Positions 25,498 to 49,762 of a stretch of 64,000 bases of DNA are shown in pieces. The notes beneath the pieces were generated by a model. The model was not told where the DNA came from and did not search any database. It worked only from the letters and a program-made list of their open reading frames with translations. The DNA is from Solimonas sp. K1W22B-7. GTDB taxonomy: Bacteria; Pseudomonadota; Gammaproteobacteria; Nevskiales; Nevskiaceae. Where the stretch lies: NCBI RefSeq assembly GCF_003428335.1, contig NZ_CP031704.1, positions 4,278,001 to 4,342,000 on the forward strand, read 5' to 3'. Numbering within the stretch: the stretch's first letter is position 1; each line of letters opens with the position of its first letter. The translations under genes were made by a program, and so were the position numbers.

Positions 25498-25898
25498 GAC
25501 TGCAGATCCCTCAGGTCTGCCATGACGGGGGCGCAAGCACAGGCGCGGCGGGCAAGCCTTGCGGCTGCCGCAGCACACTGCCGCTGGTTCCCGTCGATAT
25601 GGGTCACTTGCGCCATCCTCAGTCCTGCTGCCGCCGGCCTTGAGCCGTGTTATGGCGCATCCGCTCCGGGCGATGTCCCGATCCCGCGCGCGCTGCGCTC
25701 TCCTCGAAACCTATGTAATCAACAACGTTGTCTATACTACGCTGCTCCCATCCAGATGCAAGTTCAGCGGGGAACCCGCCGCTCAGGGCACGCAACGCAA
25801 CGAAAACAGGCCGATCACATTCCAGTATCGATCTGCATACTAAGTGAGCCCGGCAGCGCCACAACGCGGCAAGCGCTCAAGGTCAAATCTGGCTGCAG
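25498..25898. other. 401-base intergenic region upstream of the ferredoxin reductase
   Basis: The GC content drops visibly around 25690-25860. No ORF with convincing codon use or homology is seen; an 81-codon minus ORF here spans the operator and looks accidental. The region holds one copy of the CAACANTGTTG operator (25720-25730) with TAGTAT three bases upstream of it on the minus strand, a reasonable -10 for the reductase/SDR operon. That implies a leader of about 200 bases. Confidence 0.6.
25720..25730 (-). promoter_or_regulatory. Regulon operator site 1 (CAACANTGTTG family)
   Basis: The core reads CAACAACGTTG and contains the perfect palindrome ACAACGTTGT (with the next base), in AT-rich flanks. 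On the minus strand TAGTAT lies 3 bases upstream of the core. The downstream gene is the ferredoxin reductase. It is one of eight aligned sites between 25.7 and 49.8 kb. Confidence 0.7.
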
Positions 25899-26726
25899 CT
25901 AGGGTATCGAGCAGGCCGGGTTCCAGTCTTCGCCGAAGACCTCGGCGCAGACGCGCCGGACCAGTCGATCGAGCGTCGCGGTGTCAGCCGGGTCCACACG
26001 CGGCTTCCAGCCGTAGCCATTCAGCATCACCTGCATGTGCCGGAACATCGCCCGATGCGGATCGCGCAGCCCGGCAGCCTCGTGGATCCCCTGCGCATTG
26101 GCCAGCTTCTGGATGCCGGTGGCCAGCGCCCAGAAGCCCGCGGCCAGCTCCTGCGCCGAAATCGCCTGCAGCAGCAGGTCACCCGCCTGCACGCCCTCGT
26201 CGACGATCGCCACGACCAGTTCTCCGAGTGGCTGGTTGAGCCGGAGGAACTCGCGGCGGCGCTCCACGGTGGCGGCGCGCCAGACCACCTCGGTCAGCAC
26301 GTACTGGATCAGGCGAAAGTACTCGGGGTAGCGCTGCCCGGAGATCATGTGGGCAACGCCGAGCGCGAACATCCTGTCCCGCGGTCGCGCATGCCAGCGG
26401 CTCACGCGCTGGAACAGGCCCACATGCTGACGCGTGTAGTGCGCCGTCAGCGCCAGCAGCAGGTCTTCCTTCGAGGCGAAGTGCCGGTAGACCGTGCCGA
26501 CCGCGTACTCGCACCTCTCCGCGATACGCGTCATCTGCAGGTTCAGCAGCCCCTCCTCGACGATGAGCTGGCGCGCGCAATCCATGAACAGGCGCTCCCG
26601 CCGGTCGAACTCGCGCTGCTGGCGCTCGCGGATCTTCACGGCGCCGAAGCTCCTGCCGCCCGCGGAGGACAGGCCCTCACCCGCAGCGGGCTGCCGCAGC
26701 GGCCGCCGGCCCAGGCTCTCAGACAC
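25899..26726 (-). CDS. TetR-family transcriptional regulator
   Basis: 275 residues. The helix-turn-helix MTRIAERCEYAVGTVYRHFA begins near residue 65 after an unusually long basic N-terminal extension; a later start cannot be excluded. The C-terminal ligand domain is all-helical. The ATG overlaps the preceding SDR stop by 8 bases, so the regulator is co-transcribed with that SDR from the operator-bearing divergent region at 27483. It is a candidate, alongside the TetR at 33139-33825, for the protein that reads the shared operator. Confidence 0.9.
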   Translation of the reverse strand: MSESLGRRPLRQPAAGEGLSSAGGRSFGAVKIRERQQREFDRRERLFMDCARQLIVEEGLLNLQMTRIAERCEYAVGTVYRHFASKEDLLLALTAHYTRQHVGLFQRVSRWHARPRDRMFALGVAHMISGQRYPEYFRLIQYVLTEVVWRAATVERRREFLRLNQPLGELVVAIVDEGVQAGDLLLQAISAQELAAGFWALATGIQKLANAQGIHEAAGLRDPHRAMFRHMQVMLNGYGWKPRVDPADTATLDRLVRRVCAEVFGEDWNPACSIP

Positions 26727-27408
26727 GCCCGGAAACCGGGATCAACGCACCGGTGACGGCGGCGGCGCGATCGCCGAGCAGGAACAGGATCACGTCCGCC
26801 AGGGCCTGCGGCGTGACCCAGCGCGAGAAATCGGCGTCCGGCATGTCGGCACGGTTGGCCGGCGTGTCGATGATGCTGGGCAGCACGGCGTTGACCGTGA
26901 TGTCGCGCGCCTTCAGTTCCTCGGACAGCGCCTCGGTGAGGCGCGCCACGCCGGCCTTGGAGGCCGCGTAGGCGCCCATGCCGGCGGCCGCCTTCACCGC
27001 GCCCGCCGCACCGATGTTGACGATGCGCCCGCCCTGCGCCGGAAAGTGCGGCAGCGCCGCGCGGCAGGCATTGACCGCGGTGCGCAGGTTGATCTGGTAG
27101 AGCTGGTCCCAGGTGTCGAGCGAGCCATCGGCCAGCGTCTCCCAGCGGAAGCCGCCGGCGATGTTGACCAGCGCGTCGATGCGCCCGTGGCGCGCGGCGA
27201 TAGCCGCGAATGCCGCCTGCGTGTCCTGGGTGCTGCCCAGGTCCAGCGGCGGCGCGGCCTCGGCCCCCCGCGGCGGCGTACCGGCAATGCGATCCACGGC
27301 CACCACCGTGGCGCCGGCGGCAGCGGCCGCTTCCGCAACCGCCCTGCCCAGCGAGCCCAGCGCACCCGTGACCACCACCCGCTTGCCTTTCAGTTCCATG
27401 TAACTCAT
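26719..27408 (-). CDS. Short-chain dehydrogenase/reductase (SDR)
   Basis: 229 residues from the ATG after AGGAAG; a second ATG three codons on is possible. The motifs are slightly variant: VTGALGSLGRAV for the cofactor, NIAGG instead of NNAG, and YAASK intact. The acidic VAVDR after strand 2 suggests NAD preference. It overlaps the TetR gene and is transcribed divergently from an acyl-CoA ligase, with an operator between them. Confidence 0.85.
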   Translation of the reverse strand: MSYMELKGKRVVVTGALGSLGRAVAEAAAAAGATVVAVDRIAGTPPRGAEAAPPLDLGSTQDTQAAFAAIAARHGRIDALVNIAGGFRWETLADGSLDTWDQLYQINLRTAVNACRAALPHFPAQGGRIVNIGAAGAVKAAAGMGAYAASKAGVARLTEALSEELKARDITVNAVLPSIIDTPANRADMPDADFSRWVTPQALADVILFLLGDRAAAVTGALIPVSGRV

Positions 27409-27482
27409 CCGCTTCCTATGACCGGGACAGGGGTCGCCGCACATTCACTTCCTGCACCGGCGCGATGTACACTTATTGTATA

Positions 27483-27493
27483 CAACACTGTTG
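27483..27493 (+). promoter_or_regulatory. Regulon operator site 2 (CAACANTGTTG family)
   Basis: The core CAACACTGTTG is an exact match to the consensus and is identical to site 7. It lies between the divergent SDR/TetR operon and the ligase gene, so one site could control both. The flanks TTGTATA and ATTTTCTAT are AT-rich. Confidence 0.75.
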
Positions 27494-27571
27494 ATTTTCT
27501 ATCAGGGATGGAGCGGAAGTAAAGGCTGCCCCCGCCATGAGCGGGCCGGACCTTCCCGCAGGGAGCCAGAC

Positions 27572-27625
27572 ATGAGCGCAAGCCTTCACTACGACATCCA
27601 GGGCGGTTGGTTCAGGCTGCGATGA
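27572..27625 (+). CDS. 17-codon leader ORF coupled to the acyl-CoA ligase
   Basis: ATG preceded by GGGAGCC, encoding MSASLHYDIQGGWFRLR and ending at a TGA that overlaps the ligase ATG (ATGA). Ribosomes finishing this ORF could restart at the ligase, which has no strong ribosome site of its own. No attenuation hairpin is seen. It may be a coupling leader or coincidence. Confidence 0.35.
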   Translation: MSASLHYDIQGGWFRLR

Positions 27626-29088
27626 GCGCACTCCAGGACCTGGTCGCGGCCGCGCTGGCACGTCCGGCCTCCCAACCCGCCCTCGAATTCGAAGGCTGCT
27701 GGTCCAGCTGGGGCCATCTGCAGCAACTGGCCGGCCGCGTCGCCGCGCTGCTGCAAGCCAGCGGCGCGGCGAGCCCGGCACCGGTCGCCTTCGTGCCGCG
27801 CAACCGTCCTTCATCCGTCGCCGCCCTGCTCGGGCTGCTCGCCGGCGGGCGCAGCATCCGCATGATCTACGCCTTCCAGTCCACAGCGGCCATCGCACGC
27901 GACCTGGAGCGGCTGCGGCCCGCGGCGGTGGTCGCCGATGCGCAGGACTTCTCGCCCGAGGTCCGTGCCGTGCTCGCGGCACAGGGCAGCGCCGCTATCA
28001 TGCTGACGCAGGACGACGCCACGGCGCTGCCGGGCCTCGAATGCTCGCAGGTCACCAGCCCTGCGCAGGCATCCGCGCAGCCACAGATCGAGATCCTGAC
28101 CAGCGGCACCACCGGCCCACCCAAGGCCTTCACGATCAGCTACGAGCTGATCGCCCGTCACCTGGTGGGCGCGCCCGCCAGCGACCTGTCCACGCTGTCG
28201 CCCACCCTGCTGTTCTTCCCGCTGGGCAACATCTCCGGCATCTATTCCACGCTGCCGGCACTGCTGCGGGGACAGCGCGCCGTGCTGCTGGAGCGCTTCA
28301 GCGTCGCCGGCTGGCACGACTACGTGCGGCGCTACCGTCCGAAGGTCAGCGGCCTGCCGCCAGCGGGCGTGCAGATGGTGCTGGACGCCAACATCCCCGT
28401 CGCGGACCTCGCCAGCATCCGACGCCTCGGCACCGGCGCCGCACCGCTGGACCCCAGCGTGCAGCGCGCCTTCGAAGAGCGCTACGGCATTCCCATCCTG
28501 CTGTCCTATGGCGCCACGGAATTCGGCGGACCGGTGACCGCGATGACGCCGGAGCTGCACGCGCAATGGGGACAGCAGAAGTTCGGCAGCGTCGGGCGCA
28601 CACTGCCGGGTGCCCGCCTGCGCATCGTCGATCCGGACAGCGGCGCCGTCCTCCCGCCAGGGCTAGAGGGACTGCTCGAAGTGATTTCCCCGCGCATCGG
28701 GCCGGACTGGATCCGCACCTCGGACATCGCCGTGATCGACGAGGACGGCTTCCTGTTCCATCGCGGCCGCGCCGATGGCGCGATCATGCGCGGCGGGTTC
28801 AAGCTGCTGCCGGAAACGATCGAGCGCGCACTGATGCTGCACCCGGCGATTTCAGCGGTGTCGGTCGTGGGCCTCGGCGATACACGGCTGGGCCAGGTGC
28901 CCGCGGCCGCCATCCAGCTCAAGCCGGACGTGGCGCCACCAAGCGTGGCCGAACTGGAAGCCCATCTGCGTGACCAGGTCTACACGACGCACATTCCTGT
29001 CATCTGGCGCTTCGTGCAGGAGCTGCCCCGGACACCCTCGCTGAAGGTCGACCGGCCAGCGCTGCGCCGCTTGTTTTATGCTGAATGA
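27622..29088 (+). CDS. AMP-dependent acyl-CoA synthetase/ligase
   Basis: 488 residues. The ATP-binding loop ILTSGTTGPPKAF, the adenine/substrate motif LSYGATEFGG, the hinge region ending in MRGGFKLLPETIE and the C-terminal catalytic Lys in PSLKVDR are all present. It activates a carboxylic acid to its CoA thioester; the substrate is unknown. The chosen ATG overlaps the leader ORF stop; the frame also opens 15 bases earlier. A strong terminator follows immediately. Confidence 0.88.
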   Translation: MSALQDLVAAALARPASQPALEFEGCWSSWGHLQQLAGRVAALLQASGAASPAPVAFVPRNRPSSVAALLGLLAGGRSIRMIYAFQSTAAIARDLERLRPAAVVADAQDFSPEVRAVLAAQGSAAIMLTQDDATALPGLECSQVTSPAQASAQPQIEILTSGTTGPPKAFTISYELIARHLVGAPASDLSTLSPTLLFFPLGNISGIYSTLPALLRGQRAVLLERFSVAGWHDYVRRYRPKVSGLPPAGVQMVLDANIPVADLASIRRLGTGAAPLDPSVQRAFEERYGIPILLSYGATEFGGPVTAMTPELHAQWGQQKFGSVGRTLPGARLRIVDPDSGAVLPPGLEGLLEVISPRIGPDWIRTSDIAVIDEDGFLFHRGRADGAIMRGGFKLLPETIERALMLHPAISAVSVVGLGDTRLGQVPAAAIQLKPDVAPPSVAELEAHLRDQVYTTHIPVIWRFVQELPRTPSLKVDRPALRRLFYAE

Positions 29089-29128: not shown

Positions 29129-29908
29129 CTAGCGCGGCTGCATGCGGATCGCGCCATCCAGGCGCAGGGTCTCGCCATTGATGTAGCCGTTGCGCACGAT
29201 CTCCAGCGCCAGGCTGGCGTACTCGTCGGCATGGCCGAGCCGTGGCGGGAACGGCACCATCTTGCCGAGGGCGTCGAGCATCTCCGGCGTCGCCCGCGAC
29301 ATCGCCGGGGTATCGAAGATGCCCGGCTGGATCGTGTTGACGCGGATGCCCTCGCGCGACAGATCACGCGCAATGGTCAGCGTCATGCCGACGATGGCCG
29401 CCTTGGCCGCCGAGTAGGCCGCCTGCCCCATCTGGCCCTCGGTGGCGGCGGCCGAAGCCGTGCTGATCAGCACGCCGCGCTCGCCGTTGACCGGCTCCAG
29501 CGTCATCATGCCGGCCGCCGCGCGCGTGATGCAGCGGAAGGTGCCGACGGTGTTGAGCTTCAGCACCCACTCGAACTTGTCGGTGGGGAATATGTTGATC
29601 GCGCCGGTCGTCTTGTCCCGGCGGGCAGTCGGGATCGCATTGCCGCCACCGGCGCAGCACACCAGCACCCGCTCCTGGCCCTGCGCCGCACGCGCCTTGG
29701 CGAAGGCCTGGTCGACGCTCTCGTCCGACAGCACGTCGCAGCGGCAGAAGATCGCGCCCGTCCCGGCAGCGGCCTTTTCGCCAACTTCTTCATTGAGATC
29801 AAAGATCGCGACCTTCACGCCGGCCGCCCGCAAAGCCTTTACGGTGGCCAGGCCAAGGCCCGAAGCGCCACCGGTTACCACGGCGGCCAGAGAGGGTTCG
29901 ATCTTCAT
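29129..29908 (-). CDS. SDR, 3-hydroxyacyl-CoA dehydrogenase type II-like
   Basis: 259 residues. TGGASGLGLATVKAL, FDLNEEVG (Asp favouring NAD), the insert after CCAGGGNAIPTAR and YSAAK resemble the HSD17B10/type II 3-hydroxyacyl-CoA dehydrogenase group. The probable role is oxidising a 3-hydroxyacyl-CoA or hydroxysteroid-CoA intermediate before thiolysis. It is transcribed divergently from a CoA-transferase, with operator site 3 between them. Confidence 0.87.
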   Translation of the reverse strand: MKIEPSLAAVVTGGASGLGLATVKALRAAGVKVAIFDLNEEVGEKAAAGTGAIFCRCDVLSDESVDQAFAKARAAQGQERVLVCCAGGGNAIPTARRDKTTGAINIFPTDKFEWVLKLNTVGTFRCITRAAAGMMTLEPVNGERGVLISTASAAATEGQMGQAAYSAAKAAIVGMTLTIARDLSREGIRVNTIQPGIFDTPAMSRATPEMLDALGKMVPFPPRLGHADEYASLALEIVRNGYINGETLRLDGAIRMQPR

Positions 29909-29969: not shown

Positions 29970-29980
29970 CAACGATGTTG
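29970..29980 (+). promoter_or_regulatory. Regulon operator site 3 (CAACANTGTTG family)
   Basis: The core CAACGATGTTG has one mismatch to the consensus. The longer CAACA...TGTTG arms around 29967-29980 also pair. It lies in the 122-base divergent promoter between the SDR and the CoA-transferase. Confidence 0.72.
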
Positions 29981-30030
29981 ATTAGTATCATAGCCCGGAT
30001 GTCTTTGCGGTGCGTGACGGAGGAACGAGT

Positions 30031-31257
30031 ATGACGCAGGTAATGAAGGGCGTAAGAGTCCTGGAAGTGGCGCAGTTCACCTTTGTCCCGGCCGCCGGGG
30101 CCATCCTCGCGGACTGGGGCGCCGACGTCATCAAGATCGAGCACCCGGTGCGCGGCGACACGCAGCGCGGCTTCGTCAACCTCGGCGGCATCGCCGTCAA
30201 CCCGCTGCGCAGCCCCTTCGTGGAGCACCCCAACCGCGGCAAGCGCAGCGTCGGCGTCGACATCTCCACCCCCGAGGGCATGGAAGTGATCTACGAACTG
30301 GCCAGGACCGCCGATGTCTTCCTCACCAACTACCTGCCCTCGCAGCGGCAGAAGATGAAGTTCGACATCGAGCACATCCGCGCGGTGAACCCGAAGATCA
30401 TCTATGCACGCGGCAGCGCCTACGGCGACAAGGGCCCCGAGCGCGACACCGGCGGCTTCGACGGTACGGCGTTCTGGTCGCGCAGCGGCATCGGCCACAC
30501 CATGTCGCCGCCGGAACTGGGCGGCCCGCTGGCGCAGGCCATCCCCGCCTTCGGCGACTCGATCGGCGGCATGAACATCGCCGGCGGCATCGCGGCGGCG
30601 CTGTTCCATCGCGAGAAGACCGGCGCAGCCGTGGAGCTCGACGTCTCCCTGCTCAGCACCGCCTGGTGGGCCTCGGGAACGTCCATCGACATGGGCATCG
30701 ACACCGGCAAGGTCATGCGCAACCGCATGCCGTCCGCCGGCGGCAACCCGGGCAACCCACTGGCCGGCAACTACACCACGTCCGACGGCGGCACCATCAA
30801 CCTCTGCGTGCTCACGCCGGGGCCGCTGATCCGCGACACCTTCACCCACCTGGGCATACCCGAGGCCGCCGACGACCCGCGCTTCGCCGACGCCAAGGCG
30901 CTGATGCAGCACTGGAAGGAAGCCGGCGAGCTGATCGCCGAGGCCTTCAGGAAGCAGCCCTTCGAGTACTGGCGCCAGCACCTGAAGACCATGAAGGGCC
31001 AGTGGGCACCGGTGCAGAGCCTGCTCGACATCGCCACCGACGAACAGGCCCTGGCCAACGACATGCTGTTCGAGGTGGAAGCCTCCGACGGCGGCGCGCC
31101 GATCAAGCTGGTGCGCGGCCCGGTGCAGTTCAACCACGCGCCGGTGCAGACCACCCGCGCCCCGCAGGCCTCCGAGCACACCGAGATCGTGCTGATGGAA
31201 CTGGGCCTGGAGTGGGATCGCATCGAGAAGCTGAAAGCATCGGGCGCGATCGCCTGA
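30031..31257 (+). CDS. Class III (CaiB/BaiF) CoA-transferase
   Basis: 408 residues with GGAGGA before the ATG. MKGVRVLEVAQFTFVPAAGA starts the family fold, and AFGDSIGGMNIAGGIAAAL contains the catalytic Asp. It may transfer CoA onto a pathway acid or act as an acyl-CoA racemase; 2-methylacyl-CoA epimerisation is a common job for this fold in steroid side-chain degradation. It heads a three-gene operon with a small protein and an acyl-CoA ligase. Confidence 0.88.
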   Translation: MTQVMKGVRVLEVAQFTFVPAAGAILADWGADVIKIEHPVRGDTQRGFVNLGGIAVNPLRSPFVEHPNRGKRSVGVDISTPEGMEVIYELARTADVFLTNYLPSQRQKMKFDIEHIRAVNPKIIYARGSAYGDKGPERDTGGFDGTAFWSRSGIGHTMSPPELGGPLAQAIPAFGDSIGGMNIAGGIAAALFHREKTGAAVELDVSLLSTAWWASGTSIDMGIDTGKVMRNRMPSAGGNPGNPLAGNYTTSDGGTINLCVLTPGPLIRDTFTHLGIPEAADDPRFADAKALMQHWKEAGELIAEAFRKQPFEYWRQHLKTMKGQWAPVQSLLDIATDEQALANDMLFEVEASDGGAPIKLVRGPVQFNHAPVQTTRAPQASEHTEIVLMELGLEWDRIEKLKASGAIA

Positions 31258-31273
31258 CGCACACGAGGAATCC

Positions 31274-31564
31274 ATGAAACCTGGAAGGAAACTGAAAAGC
31301 GCCGCCTGCGACACCGAGGTGATGGTGATCCGCGGCAGCGACTTCGTCGTCGAATGCGGTGGCGCCCCGATGGGCGAGGAACGCCCGGCCACACGCGCCG
31401 CACTCGATCCCGCTTTCTCCGAGGGCACGAAGATCGGCAAGCGCTACACCGACGCCGCGGGCAACATCGAACTGCTCTGTGTGAAAGCCGGGCCGGGATC
31501 GCTGTCGATCGCCGGCGTCGCCCTGCAGCCCAAGGACGCCAAACCGCTGCCCTCGTCCGACTAG
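31274..31564 (+). CDS. Small conserved-looking protein of 96 residues, unknown function
   Basis: GAGGAA precedes the ATG and codon use matches the neighbours, so it is very probably a real gene. It has CDTEVMVIRG, CGGAPM and a C-terminal LCVKAGPGSLSIAGV. There are three Cys and no membrane helix or signal peptide. The ligase start lies 3 bases after its stop. Similar small proteins next to CoA ligases are familiar to me from other catabolic clusters, but I cannot name a function. A CoA-ligase accessory or metal-binding protein are possibilities. Confidence 0.7.
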   Translation: MKPGRKLKSAACDTEVMVIRGSDFVVECGGAPMGEERPATRAALDPAFSEGTKIGKRYTDAAGNIELLCVKAGPGSLSIAGVALQPKDAKPLPSSD

Positions 31565-31567
31565 CCG

Positions 31568-33879: not shown

Positions 33880-33890
33880 CAACTATGTTG
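33880..33890 (-). promoter_or_regulatory. Regulon operator site 4, upstream of the TetR gene
   Basis: The core CAACTATGTTG lies within an ACAAC-TAT-GTTGT palindrome. On the minus strand TTAAAT lies about 3 bases upstream of the core, a plausible -10 for the TetR gene. It has one mismatch to the consensus. Confidence 0.72.
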
Positions 33891-40247: not shown

Positions 40248-41771
<1,524 letters not shown>

Positions 41772-41840: not shown

Positions 41841-41851
41841 CAACAGCGTTG
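41841..41851 (-). promoter_or_regulatory. Regulon operator site 6, upstream of mmsA
   Basis: The core CAACAGCGTTG has one mismatch, in AT-rich flanks (TTATAAGT and TTCATATAT). ATATAT lies 3 bases upstream of the core on the minus strand. The mmsA start is 70 bases away. Confidence 0.72.
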
Positions 41852-42114: not shown

Positions 42115-42125
42115 CAACACTGTTG
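42115..42125 (+). promoter_or_regulatory. Regulon operator site 7, upstream of the WS/DGAT operon
   Basis: The core CAACACTGTTG is exact and lies in the longest symmetric context of all sites, TAAAT on the left and TTTATTA on the right. It is 4 bases downstream of the -10 TATATT. The first start codon is 22 bases further on. Confidence 0.8.
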
Positions 42126-42146: not shown

Positions 42147-42368
42147 ATGCTAGCCGACTACCTGATCCACCTGGAGCATCACCGCGTCGGCCGCAGGGTC
42201 GCCCTGCAGCTCTGCGTCTGCGGCATCAGGCTGCCCCGCATCCCGGCCGCACTTACTCCCCTCCTCGCTCTCCTGTTCAACGTTCCGGCCCAGGATTTGA
42301 GGGAGACAGGCCTTCCAGGCATCGCACATACCCATTCACCGGAAACGAAGGCGAACACCGCGTCATGA
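42147..42368 (+). CDS. 73-residue protein or leader coupled to the WS/DGAT gene
   Basis: ATG about 8 bases after AGGCGA, only 22 bases past operator site 7. The stop overlaps the acyltransferase ATG as ATGA. The first 50 codons have high third-position GC like real genes; the last 20 less so. The peptide has a hydrophobic middle (IPAALTPLLALLFNV) and no recognised domain. It may be a genuine small protein or a translated leader. Confidence 0.42.
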   Translation: MLADYLIHLEHHRVGRRVALQLCVCGIRLPRIPAALTPLLALLFNVPAQDLRETGLPGIAHTHSPETKANTAS

Positions 42369-43738
42369 AAAGACTGGCCATGGTCGACGACACCTTCCTG
42401 CGCTTCGAAAGCCGCCGGCAGCCGCTGCACATCGGCATGCTGATGCTGTTCGAGCCGCCGGCCGGCGCAGGGAAGGAGTTTCCGGCGCAGGTGGCCGAGC
42501 GCCTGAAGCAGTCCACCCGGGCCGCCCCGCCCTTCAACCAGCGCCTGGTGCGCCGCGGCGGCCTGCACTACTGGGAGCAGGACGATGAGTTCGACCTCGC
42601 CCACCATTTCGTCCACCTGTCGCTGCCGCAGCCGGGCCGCATCCGCGAACTGCTGGCGATGGTGTCGCGCGTGCACGGCGGGCACCTCGACCGCGCCTAT
42701 CCCCTGTGGCGCATCTACCTGATCGAGGGCCTCGAGGACGGACGCTTCGCCGTCTACCTGAAGATCCACCACTCCGTGGTCGACGGCGTGGCCGGCATCC
42801 GCATGCTGATCAACATGATGTCCACCGACGCCGAGGCCTCCAGGCAGCTGCCGCCGCCCTGGGAAGTGGGCACCCGCAGGTCCGAAACCAATCCCCTGCC
42901 GATACCGACGCGCACCGCCGGCGGCCTGTCCGCCCTGCGCTCGCTGACCCGCGAAGGCCTGAAGGCCTTCACCCCGGTGCTGCGCGAACTGCGCAGCAGC
43001 TTCCAGGACTTCCGCGCGAAGAACGCCGACCTGGTCGTCGGCGGCCAGGCCCCGCGCTGCCTGCTCAACCAGCAGGTCAGCGGCACACGGCGCTTCGCCG
43101 CGCAGTCCTATGCCACGCCGCGCATGAAGGCCGTGGCCAAGGCCTACAACGCCACGCTCAACGACGTGATCCTGGCGATGTGCGGCGGTGCCCTGCGCCG
43201 CTACCTGCAGGACCTCGACGAACTGCCCGACAAGCCCCTGGTCGCCGCGGTGCCGGTGTCGGTGCGCCGCGACCACACTGCACTGGGCAACGAAGTCGCC
43301 TTCACCCTGGCGCACCTGGCCACGCACCTCGACGATCCGGCCGCGCGGATCGTCGCGATCAAGAGCTGCATGGACTACAACAAGGAGCGCATCCGCCGCC
43401 TGTCGCCCGCACAACTGGTGACCTACGCCTCGCTGATGCTGATGCCCGGCGCGGTGAATGCCCTGCTCGGCCTGACGCCGGACAAGGCCCTGGGCAACAT
43501 CGTGATCTCGCACGTTCCCGGCCCGCGTCAGACGATGTACTGGCAGGGCGCGCGGCTCAGCGGCCTCTACCCCGCCTCCCTGCTGATCGACAGCGCCGCG
43601 CTGAACATCACCATCATCAGCCGCCACGACACGGTCGACTTCGGCCTGATCGCCTGCCGCAAGACCGTGCCGCACATGCAACGGCTGCTGGAGTATCTCG
43701 AAGACGCCCTGACGGAGCTGGAAGGCACGATCAAGTGA
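42365..43738 (+). CDS. Wax-ester synthase/diacylglycerol acyltransferase-like protein (WS/DGAT)
   Basis: 457 residues. The catalytic HHxxxDG motif appears as KIHHSVVDGVAG, with PLWRIYLIEGL before it and the C-terminal LNITIISRHDTVDFGLI typical of the family. These enzymes esterify an acyl-CoA to an alcohol or diacylglycerol at the membrane. It is placed next to an esterase, so storage and release of esters, or conjugation of a pathway alcohol, are possible roles. Expression should follow operator site 7. Confidence 0.9.
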   Translation: MKRLAMVDDTFLRFESRRQPLHIGMLMLFEPPAGAGKEFPAQVAERLKQSTRAAPPFNQRLVRRGGLHYWEQDDEFDLAHHFVHLSLPQPGRIRELLAMVSRVHGGHLDRAYPLWRIYLIEGLEDGRFAVYLKIHHSVVDGVAGIRMLINMMSTDAEASRQLPPPWEVGTRRSETNPLPIPTRTAGGLSALRSLTREGLKAFTPVLRELRSSFQDFRAKNADLVVGGQAPRCLLNQQVSGTRRFAAQSYATPRMKAVAKAYNATLNDVILAMCGGALRRYLQDLDELPDKPLVAAVPVSVRRDHTALGNEVAFTLAHLATHLDDPAARIVAIKSCMDYNKERIRRLSPAQLVTYASLMLMPGAVNALLGLTPDKALGNIVISHVPGPRQTMYWQGARLSGLYPASLLIDSAALNITIISRHDTVDFGLIACRKTVPHMQRLLEYLEDALTELEGTIK

Positions 43739-43765
43739 AGCCCCTCCCTTCCGCCGGAATCCACC

Positions 43766-44761
43766 ATGAAAGCTGAACTCATCCAGACGGACCGCCTGAC
43801 CCCGATCGCGGCTTCGGCGGCGGAGATCGTCTACCGCGACATCCCGATCGGCCTGCGCAGCCGCATCCGTGTCCGCCTCCTGCGGCTCATCCTGAAGCCG
43901 CTGGTGGGCCGGATCGTGAATGCCAGCCATTCGAAGATCGCAAAAACCCAGCTGCGCGTGGCAGCGATGCCCTGCCCCGATAGCGCCGGCCTTTCGCTCG
44001 ACTACCAGATCGTCGGCCGCGTGCCCGGCCACGTCATCGGCAGCCTGAAGGACACGAGCCGTCCGGTCGTGCTCTGGCTGCACGGCGGCGGCTTCGTCCT
44101 GCCCGCCGCTCCCGGCGCTCACATGGTCATGGTGGCGAAGATCTGCCGCGAACTCGACGCCGACGGATTCCTGCCCGACTACCGCCTCGCCCCGTTCAAC
44201 CGCTTCCCGGCCTCCCTCGACGACTGCGAGCGTGCTTATCGCGCCCTGCTGGACAAGGGCTATGCGCCATCGAAGATCGTGCTCGGCGGCGACTCGGCCG
44301 GCGGCAATCTTGCACTGGGCGTGTTGCAGCGGATTCGCAAGGCGGGCCTGCCGATGCCCTGCTGCACCGTGGCGGTATCGCCCGTGACCGAGATGGGTCG
44401 CCTCCATAGTCCGCCGTCACGCACGCGGTTGATGAAGCAGGACCCGCTGCTGCCGATCGCCGCGATGCAGCGCATCGACGAACTCTATGCCGGCGGCTGG
44501 GACGCCTCCGATCCCGAGCTTTCGCCCCTGTACATGGATTGCTGCGGCCTGCCGCCGATGTACTTCCTGGCCAGCGACAACGAGGTCCTGCTCGACGAGA
44601 CCATCCTGCTGGCGCAGCGGGTGCATGAGGCCGGCGTGCCGATGACCTGCCACGTCTGGCCGCTGCTGCCGCACGCCTTTCCCCTTTTCGAGCTGCAGTT
44701 TCCCGAAGTCCGCCAGGCGCGGCAGGAGATCGCCGGGTTCGCGAAGCGCCATCTCGGATGA
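43766..44761 (+). CDS. Alpha/beta hydrolase, hormone-sensitive-lipase family esterase
   Basis: 331 residues. The oxyanion motif HGGGF, nucleophile Ser in GDSAGG, Asp in ASDNEVLLDE and His in LPHAFP make a complete HSL-type catalytic triad. It hydrolyses short or bulky carboxylic esters. It is 27 bases downstream of the acyltransferase on the same strand, and its stop is 3 bases from the convergent SDR stop with no terminator between. Confidence 0.92.
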   Translation: MKAELIQTDRLTPIAASAAEIVYRDIPIGLRSRIRVRLLRLILKPLVGRIVNASHSKIAKTQLRVAAMPCPDSAGLSLDYQIVGRVPGHVIGSLKDTSRPVVLWLHGGGFVLPAAPGAHMVMVAKICRELDADGFLPDYRLAPFNRFPASLDDCERAYRALLDKGYAPSKIVLGGDSAGGNLALGVLQRIRKAGLPMPCCTVAVSPVTEMGRLHSPPSRTRLMKQDPLLPIAAMQRIDELYAGGWDASDPELSPLYMDCCGLPPMYFLASDNEVLLDETILLAQRVHEAGVPMTCHVWPLLPHAFPLFELQFPEVRQARQEIAGFAKRHLG

Positions 44762-44764: not shown

Positions 44765-45565
44765 TTACACCGCGAAGCTGTACCCGCCGTTGACCGGATA
44801 GGTCTGCCCGGTGATCCAGCCCGATGCCTCCGAGCACAGGAACAGCGCCATGGCGGCGACATCGTCGGGTTGGCCGAAGCGGCGGACCACATAGCGCGCG
44901 ACATGCGCCTTGGCCTGCTCGCTGGCCATGAACTCGCTCTTCGCCGGTTCATCCAGTGCCGGCTCCAGCGTCGACAGCGAGATGCAGTTCGCCGTGATGC
45001 CGTAGCGGCCCGTCTCGCGGGCAATGGCGCGCATGAAACCCGCGGCGCCGGCCTTGGCCGCCGAATACGCCGCCAGCCGTGCTTCGCCGACGCGACCGGC
45101 ATCGGACACGATCGTCACGATGCGCCCACGCTGCTGCGCCACCATGCCCGGCAGCGCGGCATGGCAGCAGTTCATCACGCCCTGCAGGTTGGTGCGCAGG
45201 AAACGGTCCCAGTCGGCCGGCCCGGTCTCCCAGAACAGCGGCGACAGGCGCATGGCCTGGTTCGGCCCGGCGTTGCCGGCATTGTTGACCAGGATCGTCA
45301 CCGGCCCCAGCGTCGCGGCACTGTCCATCGCCGCGCTCACCGCGGCGTGGTCGCCTACATCGGCGGGCACGGCGATCGCGGGCACGCCCAGCGCCCTGAT
45401 CTCGGCAGCCACCGCCTCGGCGCGTACCGCGACGAAGTCGTTGACCGCGATGCCACCGGCATTGTGCCGCGCGAAAGCCAGTGCCATGGCGCGGCCCGCA
45501 CCCTGCCCGGCCCCGGTGACGAAGGCCACCTGGCCGCCCAGGTCCAGCAGGCCTGCGTCACTCAT
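44765..45565 (-). CDS. Short-chain dehydrogenase/reductase (SDR)
   Basis: 266 residues from the ATG of MSDAGLL, with GGAG about 10 bases upstream; another in-frame ATG lies 24 bases earlier. TGAGQGAGRAMA, NNAGNAG and YSAAK are present. The loop after NNAG (MRLSPLFWETG) is longer than usual. It is the last gene of the operon that begins with the small ferredoxin. Confidence 0.88.
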   Translation of the reverse strand: MSDAGLLDLGGQVAFVTGAGQGAGRAMALAFARHNAGGIAVNDFVAVRAEAVAAEIRALGVPAIAVPADVGDHAAVSAAMDSAATLGPVTILVNNAGNAGPNQAMRLSPLFWETGPADWDRFLRTNLQGVMNCCHAALPGMVAQQRGRIVTIVSDAGRVGEARLAAYSAAKAGAAGFMRAIARETGRYGITANCISLSTLEPALDEPAKSEFMASEQAKAHVARYVVRRFGQPDDVAAMALFLCSEASGWITGQTYPVNGGYSFAV

Positions 45566-45629
45566 CGGCCGCGCACTCCATATCGGCACTCGCGCGGGGA
45601 GCCTTGCGCCCCCACGCGAGCGCCGGTCG

Positions 45630-46943
45630 TCAGGCCGCCTTCGAGTGATGCGAGAACATCTTCATCAAGTCGCCCGAGGTCACCGGACGGGCTTCCTCGC
45701 CCTCGGCCAGCGGCTTGGCGCCGCCGGAAGACTTGGGCGACACGTCCACGCCATCGGCCGCGGCCCTGGCGCGCAGCGCGCCCACCGTCAGGTCCTCGCG
45801 CCTGTGGTGCTTGAACGGGTCGAAGTTGAAGAAGCGCATCGCGTTGAGGTGGGTCACCTTGTCGATCTGCGCCTGGGTCAGGTGCGCGACGCTCTTCCAC
45901 AGGTACTCCGGCACCTCCGGCCACAGGCTGTCCGAATGCGGGTAGTCGCACTCGTAGGCCACCAGGTCCTCGTTCAGCGAGTCGAGGTTCTTCAGGCCGA
46001 AGGAATCGTCGATGAAGCAGTTCAGGAAATGGCGGCGGAAGATCTCGCTGGGCTTGGTGACGCCGAACTTCGAGTGCGTCCAGGCCTTGTGCCGCTCATG
46101 GCTGAAATCGGCGCGCTCGAGGAAGTAGGGAATCCAGCCGATGCCGCCCTCCGACAAGGCGATCTTCATCTTCGGATAGCGGTGCAGCGCATCCAGGTTC
46201 AACCAGTCGGCGGCACCGACGGAGATGGACATGGGCATGGTGGTGATCCAGGCCTCGATCGGCGACTCCATCGAAGCATGCGGCGCCGGGTTGCCGGCAC
46301 CGATGTGCAGGCAGATGGCCATGTCGTGATCGACCAGGGCCTTCCACATCGGCTCCCAGTAGGCATTGTGGATGCTCGGCAGACCCTGCACGGTCGGGTT
46401 CTCGTTGATCGAGACCGCCGTGCAGCCCTTCTTCGCGATGCGCTTGATCTCTTCCACCACGGCCTTCATGTCCCAGGTGGGCAGCAAGGCGCAGGGAATG
46501 AAGCGACCGGGGTGAGACCCGCACCACTCATCGATATGCCAGTCGTTGTAGCCGCGCATGTGGATCAGCGACAGGTTCTTGTCCGGCACCTTGTGGAAGC
46601 GGCCGCCGTCGAACCCGGGGAAACTGCCGAAGTTGAGCGACGCGGCGATGCCGTTGACGTTCATGTCGCCGACACGGGCCTTGTGGTCGTAGCAGCCGGG
46701 ACGCAGCTGCTCGAAGGAGGTCGGCTCCATGCCGTACTCATCCAGCGGGCGGCCGACCACGGCATTGAGGCCTACCGAGGGCATCTTCAGGCCCTGGTAT
46801 TCCCAGTAGGTGGTGCCGTTCTCGTTCACCAGCAGCTGCGGCGCGGTCTTCAGGTCGTTGCCGGACAGGTGCTTCTGGTACATGTCCGGCGGCTCGCTGA
46901 TGTGATCGTCGACGCTGATCAGCACCATGTCGTTCATCTTCAT
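45630..46943 (-). CDS. Amidohydrolase-2 family metal-dependent hydrolase
   Basis: 437 residues with a TIM-barrel amidohydrolase pattern: SVDDHISEPPDMY at the N-terminus (D-x-H in place of the usual H-x-H), LHIGAG in the middle and YECDYPHSDSLWP near the C-terminus with metal-ligand candidates. Relatives of this long subgroup (ACMSD-like decarboxylases and hydrolases) are frequent in steroid and terpenoid degraders. It may hydrolyse or decarboxylate a ring-opened intermediate. Confidence 0.85.
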   Translation of the reverse strand: MKMNDMVLISVDDHISEPPDMYQKHLSGNDLKTAPQLLVNENGTTYWEYQGLKMPSVGLNAVVGRPLDEYGMEPTSFEQLRPGCYDHKARVGDMNVNGIAASLNFGSFPGFDGGRFHKVPDKNLSLIHMRGYNDWHIDEWCGSHPGRFIPCALLPTWDMKAVVEEIKRIAKKGCTAVSINENPTVQGLPSIHNAYWEPMWKALVDHDMAICLHIGAGNPAPHASMESPIEAWITTMPMSISVGAADWLNLDALHRYPKMKIALSEGGIGWIPYFLERADFSHERHKAWTHSKFGVTKPSEIFRRHFLNCFIDDSFGLKNLDSLNEDLVAYECDYPHSDSLWPEVPEYLWKSVAHLTQAQIDKVTHLNAMRFFNFDPFKHHRREDLTVGALRARAAADGVDVSPKSSGGAKPLAEGEEARPVTSGDLMKMFSHHSKAA

Positions 46944-46976
46944 GAAATTCTCCTGCCTGCTTGAATGCTTGAGTGC

Positions 46977-48137
46977 TCAATCCCGCGTCAGCAGCAGGGC
47001 GGTGGCCAGAGGCCCGCCGCCCGACGTGCAGACCGCCACGCGCGGATCACCTGGAATCTGGCGTTCGCCGCCCTTGCCTCTGAGCTGCACGACCGACTCG
47101 TGCGCAAACCCGAACCCATGCAGGCGCCCGGCACCGATCTGTCCGCCGAAGGTGTTGAGCGGCAGCTCGCCGTTCAGCGCAATGCGCTGGCCGCCTTCGA
47201 TGAATTTTCCGCCCTCGCCGACACCACAGAAGCCCAGGGCCTCCAGCCAGGCCACGGCCTGGAAGCTGAAGCCGTCGTAGAGCTGCACCGTGTCCACATC
47301 GGCAGGCTTGTAGTCCGTGCGCTTCCACAGATCGGCGCCGGTGGCATAGCAGGCCATCCATTCGGCCTGGTCCCAGCTGTGGCGCTCGACCGTGCCGGCC
47401 ATGGCGGCAATGCGCACCGGCGTGCAGCGGACCTCGTCCAGCGCGTCGCCGGCCGAAACGATCAACACGGTCGAGGCATCGGTGAAGCGGTCGCAGTCAT
47501 AGAGGCACAGCGGCGAAGAAATCATCCGCGCCGACAGGTACTCCTCCATCGTCAGCGGCTCGCGCACCAGGGCGCGCGGATTGAGCGCGGCATGGGCGCG
47601 GCCGGTCAGCGCGATCTGCGCCAGCTGCTCGCGGGTCATGCCGTAGCGCTTGACGTGACGCATCGCGTACTGCGCGGTCCAGTTGGCCGCGGACAGTGCA
47701 TTGAACGGGGCGAACCACTGCGAGTAGCCGTCGACGCGATCGCGCCGCTGCACCGGGTATTCCTCGGGCCGCGCCAAGGCAGCAGCCTCGTAGACCGTGC
47801 GGTAGCAGATCACGTGGCGCGCCTGGCCGGTGCGCACGGCCGCCGCCGCGGCCACCACGGCACCCAGCTGCGAGGTGATCTCGCCGCCGCCGGCATGCCA
47901 GGTGGCGCGAATGCCCAGCGCGTCGATCAGTTCGTCTGCACCCACCGGCGAGAAGCCGAGCAGGGCCGGCACGCGCCCGGGATAGGTGGACACACCGTCG
48001 ACCTGGCCGATCGTCAGGCCGGCCTCGTCCAGCGCCTCGCGGATCGCATCCAGCGTCAGCAGCAGCGGATGGCGCGTCAGCTTCACGCCGATCCGGGACT
48101 GGCCGACGCCGCTGATATAGGCTTCGTTCGCGGACAT
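46977..48137 (-). CDS. SCP2/lipid-transfer-type thiolase-fold protein (Ltp-like)
   Basis: 386 residues of the SCP-x/lipid-transfer thiolase group (AYISGVGQSRIG, YDGFSFQAVAWLEALGFCGVGEGGKF, GFAHESVVQLRG). The usual nucleophile Cys of thiolases is absent from the segment ATWHAGGGEITSQLG. This matches Ltp2-type proteins, which work with a DUF35 partner as retro-aldolases that shorten steroid side chains. The DUF35 protein is encoded directly upstream with a one-base overlap (TGATG). Thiolase activity is less likely but not excluded. Confidence 0.85.
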   Translation of the reverse strand: MSANEAYISGVGQSRIGVKLTRHPLLLTLDAIREALDEAGLTIGQVDGVSTYPGRVPALLGFSPVGADELIDALGIRATWHAGGGEITSQLGAVVAAAAAVRTGQARHVICYRTVYEAAALARPEEYPVQRRDRVDGYSQWFAPFNALSAANWTAQYAMRHVKRYGMTREQLAQIALTGRAHAALNPRALVREPLTMEEYLSARMISSPLCLYDCDRFTDASTVLIVSAGDALDEVRCTPVRIAAMAGTVERHSWDQAEWMACYATGADLWKRTDYKPADVDTVQLYDGFSFQAVAWLEALGFCGVGEGGKFIEGGQRIALNGELPLNTFGGQIGAGRLHGFGFAHESVVQLRGKGGERQIPGDPRVAVCTSGGGPLATALLLTRD

Positions 48138-48541
48138 CAGGCAAGCTTCTCGAACAGCGGAAAATAAATCTCGCCCTGCTGCTCGAACTTCACTCTCACC
48201 CGGTCACCGATATCGACCTCTTCCACCGGGCAGCCCACGATATTGGTCGTGAGATACACGCCCGGGGCGCCGTCGATGGCCACGCGCGCGATGACATACG
48301 GCACCTCGAGCGCCGGATGCCATTTCTGGTGATTGACGGTAAAGGTATCCACCACGCCGGTCCCGGCCACCGCGACCGGCCTGACCTGCTCCGACAGGCA
48401 GCTGCGGCACACCGGGCGCGGCGGGTGGATAAAGGTCTTGCAGTCCTGGCACTGCATCAGGCGCAACTCGCCTTCCGCGCCGCCCGTCCAGAACGGGCGG
48501 TTGTCGGCATCCAGGCGCGGCATCGGACGTGGTGCGGCCAT
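48137..48541 (-). CDS. DUF35 zinc-ribbon/OB-fold protein, partner of the Ltp-like protein
   Basis: 134 residues. The N-terminal zinc ribbon has Cys31, Cys34, Cys45 and Cys48 (CQDC and CRSC), followed by an OB-fold with VAIDGAPGVYLTTNIVG. DUF35 proteins bind acyl-CoA and form an obligate complex with Ltp/SCP2-thiolase partners. The one-base overlap with the partner gene supports a stable complex. Confidence 0.92.
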   Translation of the reverse strand: MAAPRPMPRLDADNRPFWTGGAEGELRLMQCQDCKTFIHPPRPVCRSCLSEQVRPVAVAGTGVVDTFTVNHQKWHPALEVPYVIARVAIDGAPGVYLTTNIVGCPVEEVDIGDRVRVKFEQQGEIYFPLFEKLA

Positions 48542-48554
48542 CCCTGTGCCTGCC

Positions 48555-49370
48555 TCAGGAAGCGTTGGCCATCAGGCTGCGCGGATCGATCTGGCCCGTG
48601 GCGATGCCGCCCATGAAGCCACCGTCCACCGCCAGCGCAACGCCGTTGATGTAGCTCGCCGCCGGGCTGTTGAGGAACAGCAGCGGGCCGGCCTGCTCGT
48701 CCGGGGTCGAACGGCGGTTGATCGGCTGCATCGCTGCATCCAGCACCGAGGCCTTGGTGGCCTGTTCGAAGTGGCTCATCATCGGCGTCTGCGTCGGGCC
48801 GGGCATGGTGCAGTTGATGCGGATGCCCTGCTTGATCAGGCGGAAGGAGCTCACCATGGTCCACAGGATGATCGCCTCCTTGGAGAAGGCATAGCCCTCC
48901 CTGACCTGCTCGGCATTGTCCTGGCACCACTTGATGGACGCTTCGTAGTCGGTGATCTGCAGCAGCTGCATCAGCACCGGAATGCGACGGCTCCAGCCCA
49001 TGCCGCCATTGGAGGAGATGCTGACGATGGCGCCGCCCTCGGACATCAGCGGCAGCACGGCTTCGGTCACGCGGCGCGTGCCGGCGTAGTTGACCTTCAT
49101 CACGTCCAGCGCCGGCGAGGTCTGCGGCAGACCGGCACAGTTGAACAGCGCATCGACCTTGCCGCCGATCCTGGCGATGGTGGCGTCGATGGCCGCAGGG
49201 TCGCGCAGGTCCACCTGGTTGAACGAAGCCAGGCTCAGCTGGGTCGGCTTGTAGTCGATGCCATGCACTTCGGCGCCCTGCTCCAGCAGCTTGCGGGCCG
49301 TGGCCTCGCCCATGCCGGAGAAACAGCCGCTGACGACCACACGCTTGTTCTTGTAACCCAGAAAGTCCAT
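48555..49370 (-). CDS. SDR, hydroxysteroid-dehydrogenase-like
   Basis: 271 residues. The cofactor motif is VSGCFSGMGEAT and the catalytic pair reads YAFSKEA. FNCAGLP replaces NNAG. An extended segment between the catalytic Ser region and Tyr resembles 3-alpha-hydroxysteroid dehydrogenase/carbonyl reductase-type SDRs. NAD(P) and a hydroxysteroid-like substrate are plausible. It lies between the small ferredoxin and the DUF35/Ltp pair. Confidence 0.85.
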   Translation of the reverse strand: MDFLGYKNKRVVVSGCFSGMGEATARKLLEQGAEVHGIDYKPTQLSLASFNQVDLRDPAAIDATIARIGGKVDALFNCAGLPQTSPALDVMKVNYAGTRRVTEAVLPLMSEGGAIVSISSNGGMGWSRRIPVLMQLLQITDYEASIKWCQDNAEQVREGYAFSKEAIILWTMVSSFRLIKQGIRINCTMPGPTQTPMMSHFEQATKASVLDAAMQPINRRSTPDEQAGPLLFLNSPAASYINGVALAVDGGFMGGIATGQIDPRSLMANAS

Positions 49371-49423
49371 CTCACTCCTCCAAAGCTTGTTCTATGCAGG
49401 CGACCTGACGGGCCGCGCCGGAA

Positions 49424-49618
49424 TCACTCTTCCACAACGACGATGATGCGCTCGGGGCAGGCCCGCGCTCCGCGCCGGGCCAGCGCCTCCATGCCCTCGG
49501 GCACGTCGATTTCCTCGACGGCGATATAGCCGTCCTCGTTCAGCGGAAACAGCTCCGCCGACACGGCCGCGCAGCGCGCGTTGCCGACGCAGGACGCCTT
49601 GTCTATCCGAATTTTCAT
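49424..49618 (-). CDS. Small ferredoxin, [3Fe-4S]-type
   Basis: 64 residues with Cys10 and Cys16 in CVGNARC and Cys54 in RACPERII; the middle Cys of a [4Fe-4S] motif is absent, which indicates a [3Fe-4S] cluster. Such ferredoxins usually serve P450s. No P450 lies in this operon, so the partner may be the P450 at 4272-5594 or one outside the window. It is the first gene of a six-gene operon controlled from operator site 8. Confidence 0.9.
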   Translation of the reverse strand: MKIRIDKASCVGNARCAAVSAELFPLNEDGYIAVEEIDVPEGMEALARRGARACPERIIVVVEE

Positions 49619-49751
49619 GTCTTCCTCCTGCGACGGCGGCTCGCCCCCGGCGCCCCGGATAGGCCGTGCCTGGGTGCCGCCACCGCGAACGGTTCCCGGG
49701 CGCGAAACGGTGCGCCCCGGAAAACTTTATCTCACAAATCCAGATAACATA

Positions 49752-49762
49752 CAACAGTGATG
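49752..49762 (-). promoter_or_regulatory. Regulon operator site 8, upstream of the ferredoxin/Ltp operon
   Basis: The core CAACAGTGATG has one mismatch. On the minus strand the perfect -10 TATAAT (49766-49771) ends 3 bases before the core. The ferredoxin start is 134 bases downstream. Confidence 0.72.

What the first reader, a model, noticed from the sequence alone, without database searches (positions are those of the whole stretch)
25720..49762. Eight-site regulon with operator CAACANTGTTG in a 24-kb catabolic block
Reading the intergenic regions gives eight sites that align without gaps: 25720, 27483, 29970, 33880, 36035, 41841, 42115 and 49752. Two are exact matches and six carry one mismatch. 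All lie in AT-rich promoter regions, none of the eight inside a gene. The consensus is a palindrome, CAACA-N-TGTTG, with weaker outer TATTA-like arms. It differs from the KstR, KstR2 and PsrA motifs as I recall them. It links a ferredoxin reductase, SDRs, ligases, CoA-transferase, thiolase, mmsA/E1, WS/DGAT and the Ltp/DUF35 operon into one probable regulon. Genes of the P450 block (1-13 kb) have none.
Basis: partly seen in the sequence, partly recalled or inferred. Interest (0 to 1): 0.86.

Follow-up and report, generated by a model that had tools for sequence, protein, structure and literature searches.

The report
TetR repressor regulon for ring-compound breakdown
Eight matching DNA switches in front of gene groups for breaking down ring-shaped organic compounds are real, and comparison with related bacteria points to one particular repressor protein encoded in the same block as the one that reads them; a useful, testable but not exotic finding.

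Summary
CAACANTGTTG (≤1 mismatch) occurs 8 times in the window at the stated coordinates; 0.73 are expected and 0 of 100 shuffles reach 8. A weight matrix built from sites upstream of TetR2 homologues in other genomes ranks the eight sites as the eight best distinct places in the window. DNA around 80 TetR2 homologues holds 19 exact copies of the 11-mer and none of its nine rearrangements. In 21 of 27 Novosphingobium loci a site lies 40-118 bp before the TetR2 match. None of 19 TetR1 homologue loci in other genomes has a site before the gene. The operator is about 21 bp, TAAW-CAACA-N-TGTTG-WTTA. The regulon extends outside the window: 12 further strong ≤1-mismatch sites and two with two mismatches, one of them before a TetR2 paralogue. 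Five promoters are well conserved in relatives, mmsA partly; the ligase at 27.6 kb and WS/DGAT are not or poorly conserved. Repression, inducer and substrate (steroid- or terpenoid-like) are inferred. New member of a known kind.

The parts
25720..25730 (.). operator 1, upstream of ferredoxin reductase-SDR operon (25578 to 23543)
   Evidence: 1 mismatch; matrix score 26.1; site also upstream of the two closest orthologues, 78-79% identical (L178, L179), but of 0 of 12 more distant homologues read
27483..27493 (.). operator 2, between SDR-TetR1 operon (minus) and acyl-CoA ligase (plus)
   Evidence: exact; score 22.3; no site at 4 of 4 ligase orthologues nor at the 1 SDR orthologue
29970..29980 (.). 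operator 3, between SDR (minus) and CoA-transferase III-ligase operon (plus)
   Evidence: 1 mismatch; score 25.2; site at 5 of 6 CoA-transferase and 3 of 5 SDR orthologues
33880..33890 (.). operator 4, upstream of the TetR2 gene (autoregulatory)
   Evidence: 1 mismatch; score 23.5; site upstream of both same-genus TetR2 orthologues (L017, L018) and before the TetR2 match in 21 of 27 Novosphingobium loci
36035..36045 (.). operator 5, upstream of thiolase-E2-(TetR2) genes
   Evidence: 1 mismatch; score 23.3; site at 5 of 6 thiolase orthologues
41841..41851 (.). operator 6, upstream of mmsA-E1alpha-E1beta
   Evidence: 1 mismatch; score 21.3; site at 2 of 5 mmsA orthologues
42115..42125 (.). operator 7, upstream of WS/DGAT
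   Evidence: exact; score 29.4, best in window; site at 1 of 1 orthologue, 0 of 14 homologue loci read
49752..49762 (.). operator 8, upstream of ferredoxin-SDR-DUF35-Ltp-amidohydrolase-SDR genes; also divergent from cyclase-wHTH gene 49992
   Evidence: 1 mismatch; score 25.6; sites upstream in the 4 relatives (of 7 searched) that carry the operon's SDR (L206-L209) and in L043
33139..33825 (-). TetR2, 228 aa, proposed cognate repressor
   Evidence: TetR_N 5.4e-13; VNRGTAY of the recognition helix invariant in 30 aligned homologues (the scan used VNRGTAYQ as one of two seeds, so this is partly by selection); AlphaFold2 model pLDDT 86.9, TetR fold
25899..26726 (-). TetR1, 275 aa; probably a regulon member, not the reader of the motif
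   Evidence: TetR_N 1.1e-13; homologues in 24 of 37 genomes; no site before the gene in 19 of 19 homologue loci outside this genome
23543..25578 (-). SDR and ferredoxin reductase
26719..27444 (-). SDR (operon with TetR1)
27622..29088 (+). acyl-CoA ligase
29129..29908 (-). SDR
30010..33067 (+). CoA-transferase III, 96-aa unknown, acyl-CoA ligase
33933..35951 (-). 2-oxoacid dehydrogenase acyltransferase (catalytic domain only) and thiolase
38221..41771 (-). E1beta, E1alpha, methylmalonate-semialdehyde dehydrogenase-type ALDH
42365..44761 (+). WS/DGAT acyltransferase and alpha/beta hydrolase
44765..49618 (-). SDR, amidohydrolase, Ltp-type thiolase, DUF35 (ChsH2-like OB/zinc ribbon), SDR, 4Fe-4S ferredoxin

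Best explanation
The eight sites are operators of the TetR-family protein encoded at 33139-33825 (TetR2). A TetR2 dimer binds the ~21-bp palindrome TAAW-CAACA-N-TGTTG-WTTA in the promoters of several catabolic operons and of its own gene and, as most TetR proteins do, blocks transcription. A pathway metabolite, plausibly an acyl-CoA thioester or the parent steroid- or terpenoid-like compound, releases it, so that monooxygenase electron-transfer, CoA-ligation, side-chain thiolase and 2-oxoacid dehydrogenase modules are induced together. The same operator serves loci outside the window, including that of a TetR2 paralogue, so two related repressors may share one operator set. Shown here by sequence: the operator, its link to TetR2 homologues, autoregulatory placement, and conservation at several promoters. 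Inferred: binding, repression, inducer and substrate.
For: Site count against chance. A matrix trained on 15 distinct sites 20-250 bp upstream of TetR2 homologues, none from this genome, ranks the eight window sites first (21.3-29.4; maximum of 10 Markov-shuffled windows 17.0). In 1.45 Mb around 80 homologues: 19 exact 11-mers, 0 for each of nine rearrangements; 108 against 7 for the reversed control at <=1 mismatch. In an enumeration of palindromes with 5-base halves in the 300 bp before TetR2 homologues, CAACA-N1-TGTTG is first in the mainly sphingomonad set (19 of 35 non-redundant loci; next 12) and first overall (24 of 68; next 17). Autoregulatory sites in both same-genus relatives that carry TetR2, with different centres, and in 21 of 27 Novosphingobium loci. 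Conservation: 17 of 29 operon-lead orthologues have a site scoring >=19 against 6 of 37 other genes; the divergent SDR and CoA-transferase share one site and count twice. Ferredoxin operon 4 of 4; ferredoxin reductase 2 of 2 closest orthologues and 0 of 12 more distant homologues. Same-family genomes with a close TetR2 (7) hold 31 exact sites (control 5), those without (30) hold 36 (control 15); one-sided rank test p=0.006. The TetR2 paralogue has its own site (1578473, score 23.6).
Against: No binding or expression data. The matrix training sites were chosen with the core pattern, so only their position and outer arms are independent. Among the 33 remaining loci the palindrome is not in the top 12 (TetR2 there often sits inside an operon), and GC-rich palindromes reach 20-25 of 68 in control regions 3 kb away, so the raw count of 24 is striking only beside AT/GC make-up and the next-ranked upstream palindromes. 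Six of 27 Novosphingobium loci lack a site before TetR2. The ligase and WS/DGAT sites are not or poorly conserved, mmsA only in 2 of 5. Over all 61 genomes the association is weaker: 8 with TetR2 hold 35 (control 5), 53 without hold 88 (control 32), and some genomes without a TetR2 hit have excess sites (G042: 15 against 3; G039: 7 against 2; G043: 5 against 0). Only one of the eight sites overlaps a sigma-70-like element, which is at chance level. TetR family membership does not prove repression.
Confidence: 0.85

Rival explanations
1. TetR1 (25899-26726) is the regulator that binds the motif.
For: TetR1 is in the block and its operon has an exact site upstream at 27483.
Against: TetR1 homologues occur in 24 of 37 genomes, many without excess sites, and none was found in G014, which has 8 exact sites against 1 control. 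Of 19 homologue loci outside this genome none has a site before the gene; two have something downstream, one matrix hit (18.7, L165) and one weak core match (L163). No TetR1 homologue (E<=1e-15, 60% coverage) among the ORFs called in the 80 TetR2 loci.
Confidence: 0.05
2. The operators are shared by TetR2 and its paralogue at G000:C1:1578563-1579249, with the paralogue doing part or most of the repression.
For: 67% identical, same recognition-helix residues, own operator 1578473 and two sites (1574503, 1574574) near a P450 gene 4 kb away; G001 and G002 also carry two close copies.
Against: Not exclusive of the main reading; G014, G021, G024, G013 and G048 have one close homologue only.
Confidence: 0.4
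3. TetR2 is an activator or dual regulator rather than a repressor.
For: Site centres lie 44-245 bp from start codons and only one overlaps a sigma-70-like element.
Against: Most characterised TetR proteins repress (general knowledge); autoregulatory placement about 60 bp from the start fits repression.
Confidence: 0.1
4. The eight sites are a coincidence or a structural repeat without regulatory role.
For: At 11-mer level 21 of the 29 low-scoring genome places lie inside called genes, and 4 of the 12 high-scoring outside places fall in the 5' ends of called ORFs.
Against: Chance test, external matrix, conservation by promoter, rearrangement control.
Confidence: 0.02

Closest known systems
KstR / KstR2 (mycobacterial cholesterol repressors)
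   Same: TetR-family protein with a multi-operon catabolic regulon whose inducers are CoA thioesters (PMC6678751, passages); KstR2 (4w1u) is among the fold matches
   Different: Different operator: no window match to KstR or KstR2 consensi as recalled; no NCBIfam KstR hit for TetR2; 16% identity to KstR2 in the structural alignment
EdcR of Caenibius tardaugens (PMC8700777, abstract and passages read)
   Same: TetR-family repressor of steroid catabolic operons in a proteobacterium; operator-like sequence also at its own promoter
   Different: Published putative operator TnnCnnTACnAnTnGTAnnGnnA is not this motif; one match within 2 mismatches in the window, at 53719, away from the eight sites
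TetR EGO55_16300 of C. tardaugens bsd I bile-salt cluster (PMC12882949, passages read)
   Same: TetR gene beside an amidohydrolase in a side-chain cluster
   Different: Proposed operator-like sequences ATAGGGCCATTG and GCATGCGGGATGC do not resemble this motif; protein sequence not compared
Acyl-CoA-responsive TetR proteins (B. subtilis FadR, T. thermophilus FadR, AibR)
   Same: Fold match, solved with acyl-CoA ligands according to the entry titles
   Different: 16-21% identity only; ligand not tested here
Zur boxes of Desulfovibrio (PMC545781, passages read)
   Same: Candidate site ATGCAACagtGTTGCAT shares the CAAC-N3-GTTG core letters
   Different: Different regulator class (zinc regulator), other arms (ATG/CAT); a chance look-alike

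Membership tests
TetR family of regulators | TetR_N helix-turn-helix domain | tested here: met
   PF00440 48.9 bits, cut-off 24
TetR family of regulators | all-helical fold of nine or more helices | tested here: met
   AlphaFold2 model, ten helices, pLDDT 86.9; Foldseek probability 1.00 to the 50 listed chains, TetR-type by title
TetR family of regulators | dimer binding a palindromic operator | tested here: inconclusive
   palindrome tied to the family by sequence; dimer and binding not testable here
KstR | matches the curated KstR model | tested here: not met
   no NF033703 hit for TetR2 at E<=1e-5; TetR1 32.8 bits against cut-off 280
KstR | operator TnnAACnnGTTnnA (consensus recalled) | tested here: not met
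   0 exact matches in window
KstR2 | operator AnCAAGnnCTTGnT (consensus recalled) | tested here: not met
   0 exact matches in window
EdcR | operator TnnCnnTACnAnTnGTAnnGnnA | tested here: not met
   1 place within 2 mismatches, at 53719; 0.26 expected, 23 of 100 shuffles reach 1
PsrA / FadR fatty-acid regulators | operator and orthology | not tested
   FadR proteins appear only as distant fold matches; PsrA motif not scanned

The most novel reading that the evidence does not exclude
TetR2 defines an undescribed repressor family that acts in Solimonadaceae and relatives, and in simpler form in sphingomonads and Steroidobacter, as a Gram-negative functional counterpart of KstR: one conserved operator co-ordinating scattered steroid- or terpenoid-degradation modules (P450s, KstD-like dehydrogenases, CoA ligases, Ltp/DUF35 side-chain enzymes), with duplicated repressors sharing it.
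Probability: 0.35. Interest if true: 0.65.

Novelty: new member of a known kind. Interest (0 to 1): 0.45.

Why it matters
Regulation of steroid and terpenoid breakdown in Gram-negative bacteria is poorly known; [quoted passage not shown] A defined operator tied to one regulator makes the regulon predictable in many genomes, groups unassigned enzymes into one pathway, and gives a ready biosensor part if the inducer is found.

Tried and rejected
TetR1 as reader of the motif: rejected. KstR, KstR2 and EdcR operators: absent, or one match not near the sites (the first two consensi are recalled, the third is from PMC8700777). PheR of Sphingobium (PMC13273656, passages) is an IclR protein with core GCAACG and was set aside. 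Promoter and terminator scans gave little: one promoter-like match, at 36035, with 0.6 expected. Known steroid ring genes: KshA_C gives 6 places over the cut-off in this genome; extradiol dioxygenase TIGR03213 gives 4 matches, none over the cut-off. No strong operator among the listed places lies near the best of these, except a borderline site (1830615, score 20.7) before a KshA-like gene; so the ring-cleavage core seems outside the regulon and the substrate stays open. The 96-aa ORF 31274-31564 has no Pfam hit even at E 0.1. Plasmid collection: 2 of 72,556 records hold a TetR2 homologue at E<=1e-20; one was read. Papers on steroid degraders (PMC4810484, PMC5790920, PMC8399759, PMC6678751; passages only) name no such operator in the passages seen. 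Paper searches. One search was badly set (min_terms 1) and says nothing. One search (TetR with CAACATTGTTG) found 3 papers and (two or more of TetR and three other spellings) 3 papers; by title 5 of these 6 are unrelated, and the sixth (PMC545781) holds the string as a Zur box, 'tetr' there being tetratricopeptide. No held paper describing this operator was found in these searches; subscription papers and preprints are not held, and a motif printed only in a figure would be missed.
Full report
The observation. The 11-mer CAACANTGTTG with at most one mismatch occurs exactly eight times in the 64-kb window, at the eight coordinates given, two exact and six with one mismatch; dinucleotide shuffles give 0.73 on average and never more than 4 in 100. 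Gene calls with Pfam and NCBIfam names put all eight between named genes and upstream of at least one; centres lie 44-245 bp from the assigned start codons. Two short low-scoring mechanical ORFs overlap the 41841 and 42115 sites and were discounted without a library search.

Genome-wide. The window is G000:C1:4278001-4342000 of a 5.37-Mb genome. The 11-mer at ≤1 mismatch has 55 places against 15 for the reversed control; exact copies are 7 against 0. With AT arms added (WNWNW on each side, ≤2 mismatches) there are 18 against 2. One search listed 50 of the 55 places: 8 in the window and 42 outside; I scored 41 of those 42 (1926475 was not fetched, and 5 were never listed). Scores fall in two groups: 12 of 41 outside places score 19.6 or more, the other 29 score 14.1 or less, and 21 of those 29 lie inside called genes. 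High scorers outside the window: 4239587, 4242413, 4250852, 4259287 and 4268239 in an island to the left; 1574503 and 1574574; 1655863 and 1657193; 755213; 361059; and the borderline 1830615. Two more with two mismatches score well: 4250909 and 1578473. Four of the 12 (4259287, 4242413, 1574574, 4268239) fall in the 5' ends of mechanically called ORFs. For 4259287 and 1574574 I think the called starts are too long (the E1 domain match begins about 30 residues later than in the window's E1). The sites 4242413 and 4268239 overlap the called start codons, and 4268239 sits at a junction of same-strand genes, so they need direct tests.

Which regulator. The block encodes two TetR proteins. TetR2 (33139-33825) has a site at its own promoter. 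Close homologues were found in 8 of 61 genomes searched (this one included; 11 of 61 at E≤1e-10, three of them weak). In both same-genus genomes carrying it, the TetR2 promoter keeps the site with a different centre. A scan of bacterial genomes with the family alignment kept the best 80 of 127 confirmed loci, in Solimonas, Sinimarinibacterium, Nevskia, Hydrocarboniphaga, Steroidobacter, Zhongshania, Novosphingobium, Sphingobium and others. That 1.45 Mb holds 19 exact 11-mers and none of each of the nine other palindromes with rearranged halves; 108 against 7 at ≤1 mismatch. In 21 of 27 Novosphingobium loci a site lies 40-118 bp before the TetR2 match, in most 40-75 bp. Without assuming the motif, enumeration of palindromes with 5-base halves ranks CAACA-N1-TGTTG first in 35 mainly sphingomonad upstream regions (19) and first in all 68 non-redundant regions (24), but not within the top 12 for the 33 others, where TetR2 often lies inside an operon; regions 3 kb away show only GC-rich palindromes, at 20-25 of 68. 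TetR1 homologues are in 24 of 37 genomes, and 19 of 19 homologue loci outside this genome lack a site before the gene; two have a hit downstream.

External matrix. A 23-bp matrix from 15 distinct sites upstream of TetR2 homologues in other genomes gives the eight window sites as the eight best distinct places (21.3-29.4). A shifted overlap of site 3 scores 21.5, shifts of other sites score lower, and the next independent place scores 13.5; ten Markov-shuffled windows reach at most 17.0. The training sites were selected by the core, so the independent evidence is their position and their arms.

Conservation by promoter. At orthologues (60% identity or more) in the TetR2 loci, a site scoring ≥19 lies upstream of 17 of 29 operon-lead genes and 6 of 37 other genes. 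By promoter: CoA-transferase 5 of 6, its divergent SDR 3 of 5 (one shared site), thiolase 5 of 6, mmsA 2 of 5, WS/DGAT 1 of 1, ferredoxin 1 of 1, ligase-27622 0 of 4, SDR-26719 0 of 1. In seven relatives searched further, the ferredoxin operon has sites in 4 of the 4 genomes that carry its SDR, ferredoxin reductase in the 2 closest of 14 loci read (15 matches), and WS/DGAT in 0 of 14 loci read (32 matches).

Genome association. Among same-family genomes, the 7 with a close TetR2 hold 31 exact sites (control 5) and the 30 without hold 36 (control 15), p=0.006; over all 61, 8 with TetR2 hold 35 (control 5) and 53 without hold 88 (control 32). Some genomes without TetR2 (G042, G039, G043) have an unexplained excess.

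What it controls. In the window: ferredoxin and ferredoxin reductase, SDRs, two acyl-CoA ligases, CoA-transferase III, thiolase, E1 and E2 components, an MMSDH-type dehydrogenase, WS/DGAT, and a ferredoxin-SDR-DUF35-Ltp-amidohydrolase operon. Outside, near or behind strong sites: two P450s (L134 and the gene across L131/L132, whose C-terminal half matches Pfam p450 and whose N-terminal half has no hit), Rieske proteins, acyl-CoA dehydrogenases, enoyl-CoA hydratases, further ligases, E1, a KstD-like FAD dehydrogenase, an Rv0768-type aldehyde dehydrogenase and AraC regulators. In sphingomonads the common neighbours are an MDR oxidoreductase, a ligase, an aldehyde dehydrogenase and an SDR. This fits oxidation and CoA-dependent shortening of an alicyclic compound such as a steroid or terpenoid; Hydrocarboniphaga is a predicted steroid degrader (PMC4810484, passages). 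The substrate is not settled: the steroid equivalogs hit do not reach their cut-offs and ring-cleavage candidates lie away from the listed strong sites, apart from a KshA-like gene at the borderline site.

Mechanism. The TetR2 model is a normal TetR fold (pLDDT 86.9); the 50 fold matches shown include acyl-CoA-binding repressors (KstR2, FadR, AibR) but also others, at 10-24% identity, so the ligand class is only suggested. I infer repression with autoregulation and release by a pathway CoA thioester or substrate. The paralogue 67% identical to TetR2, with its own operator, suggests overlapping control.

Verdict. A real regulon with a well-defined operator and a well-supported candidate regulator; a new member of a known kind. 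I found no description of this operator in the searches, which cover open-licence papers only.

Noticed in passing
L134:8569-9258 (G000:C1:1578569-1579258): A TetR2 paralogue, 67% identical, with its own operator at 1578473 and two more sites (1574503, 1574574) between a KstD-like FAD dehydrogenase and a P450.
   Followed up: partly
L132:852 and 909; L134:4503 and 4574; L206:2668 and 2737; L207:1063 and 1132: Operators come in pairs 57-71 bp apart at some promoters (near P450 genes and the ferredoxin operon), which may mean two dimers or looping.
   Followed up: no
33933-34676: The E2-type acyltransferase has the catalytic domain only (Pfam match 24-244 of 247 aa) and no lipoyl or subunit-binding domain was hit; the 96-aa ORF at 31274 has no Pfam hit to fill the gap.
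   Followed up: partly
genomes G042, G039, G043: Excess exact sites (15 vs 3, 7 vs 2, 5 vs 0) without a TetR2 hit at E<=1e-10; perhaps a more distant homologue or other composition.
   Followed up: no
1-13200: The P450 block without operators: enoyl-CoA hydratase, FAD dehydrogenase, 2Fe-2S ferredoxin, SDR, P450, a 577-aa AraC-type regulator and a hydantoinase A/B pair; possibly under the AraC protein.
   Followed up: partly
49992-51740: A protein joining a nucleotidyl cyclase (Guanylate_cyc) domain with a C-terminal winged-helix DNA-binding domain, divergent from operator 8.
   Followed up: no
L131:8413 and L132:18239: Two strong sites overlap the called start codons of an enoyl-CoA hydratase and an acyl-CoA dehydrogenase.
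   Followed up: no
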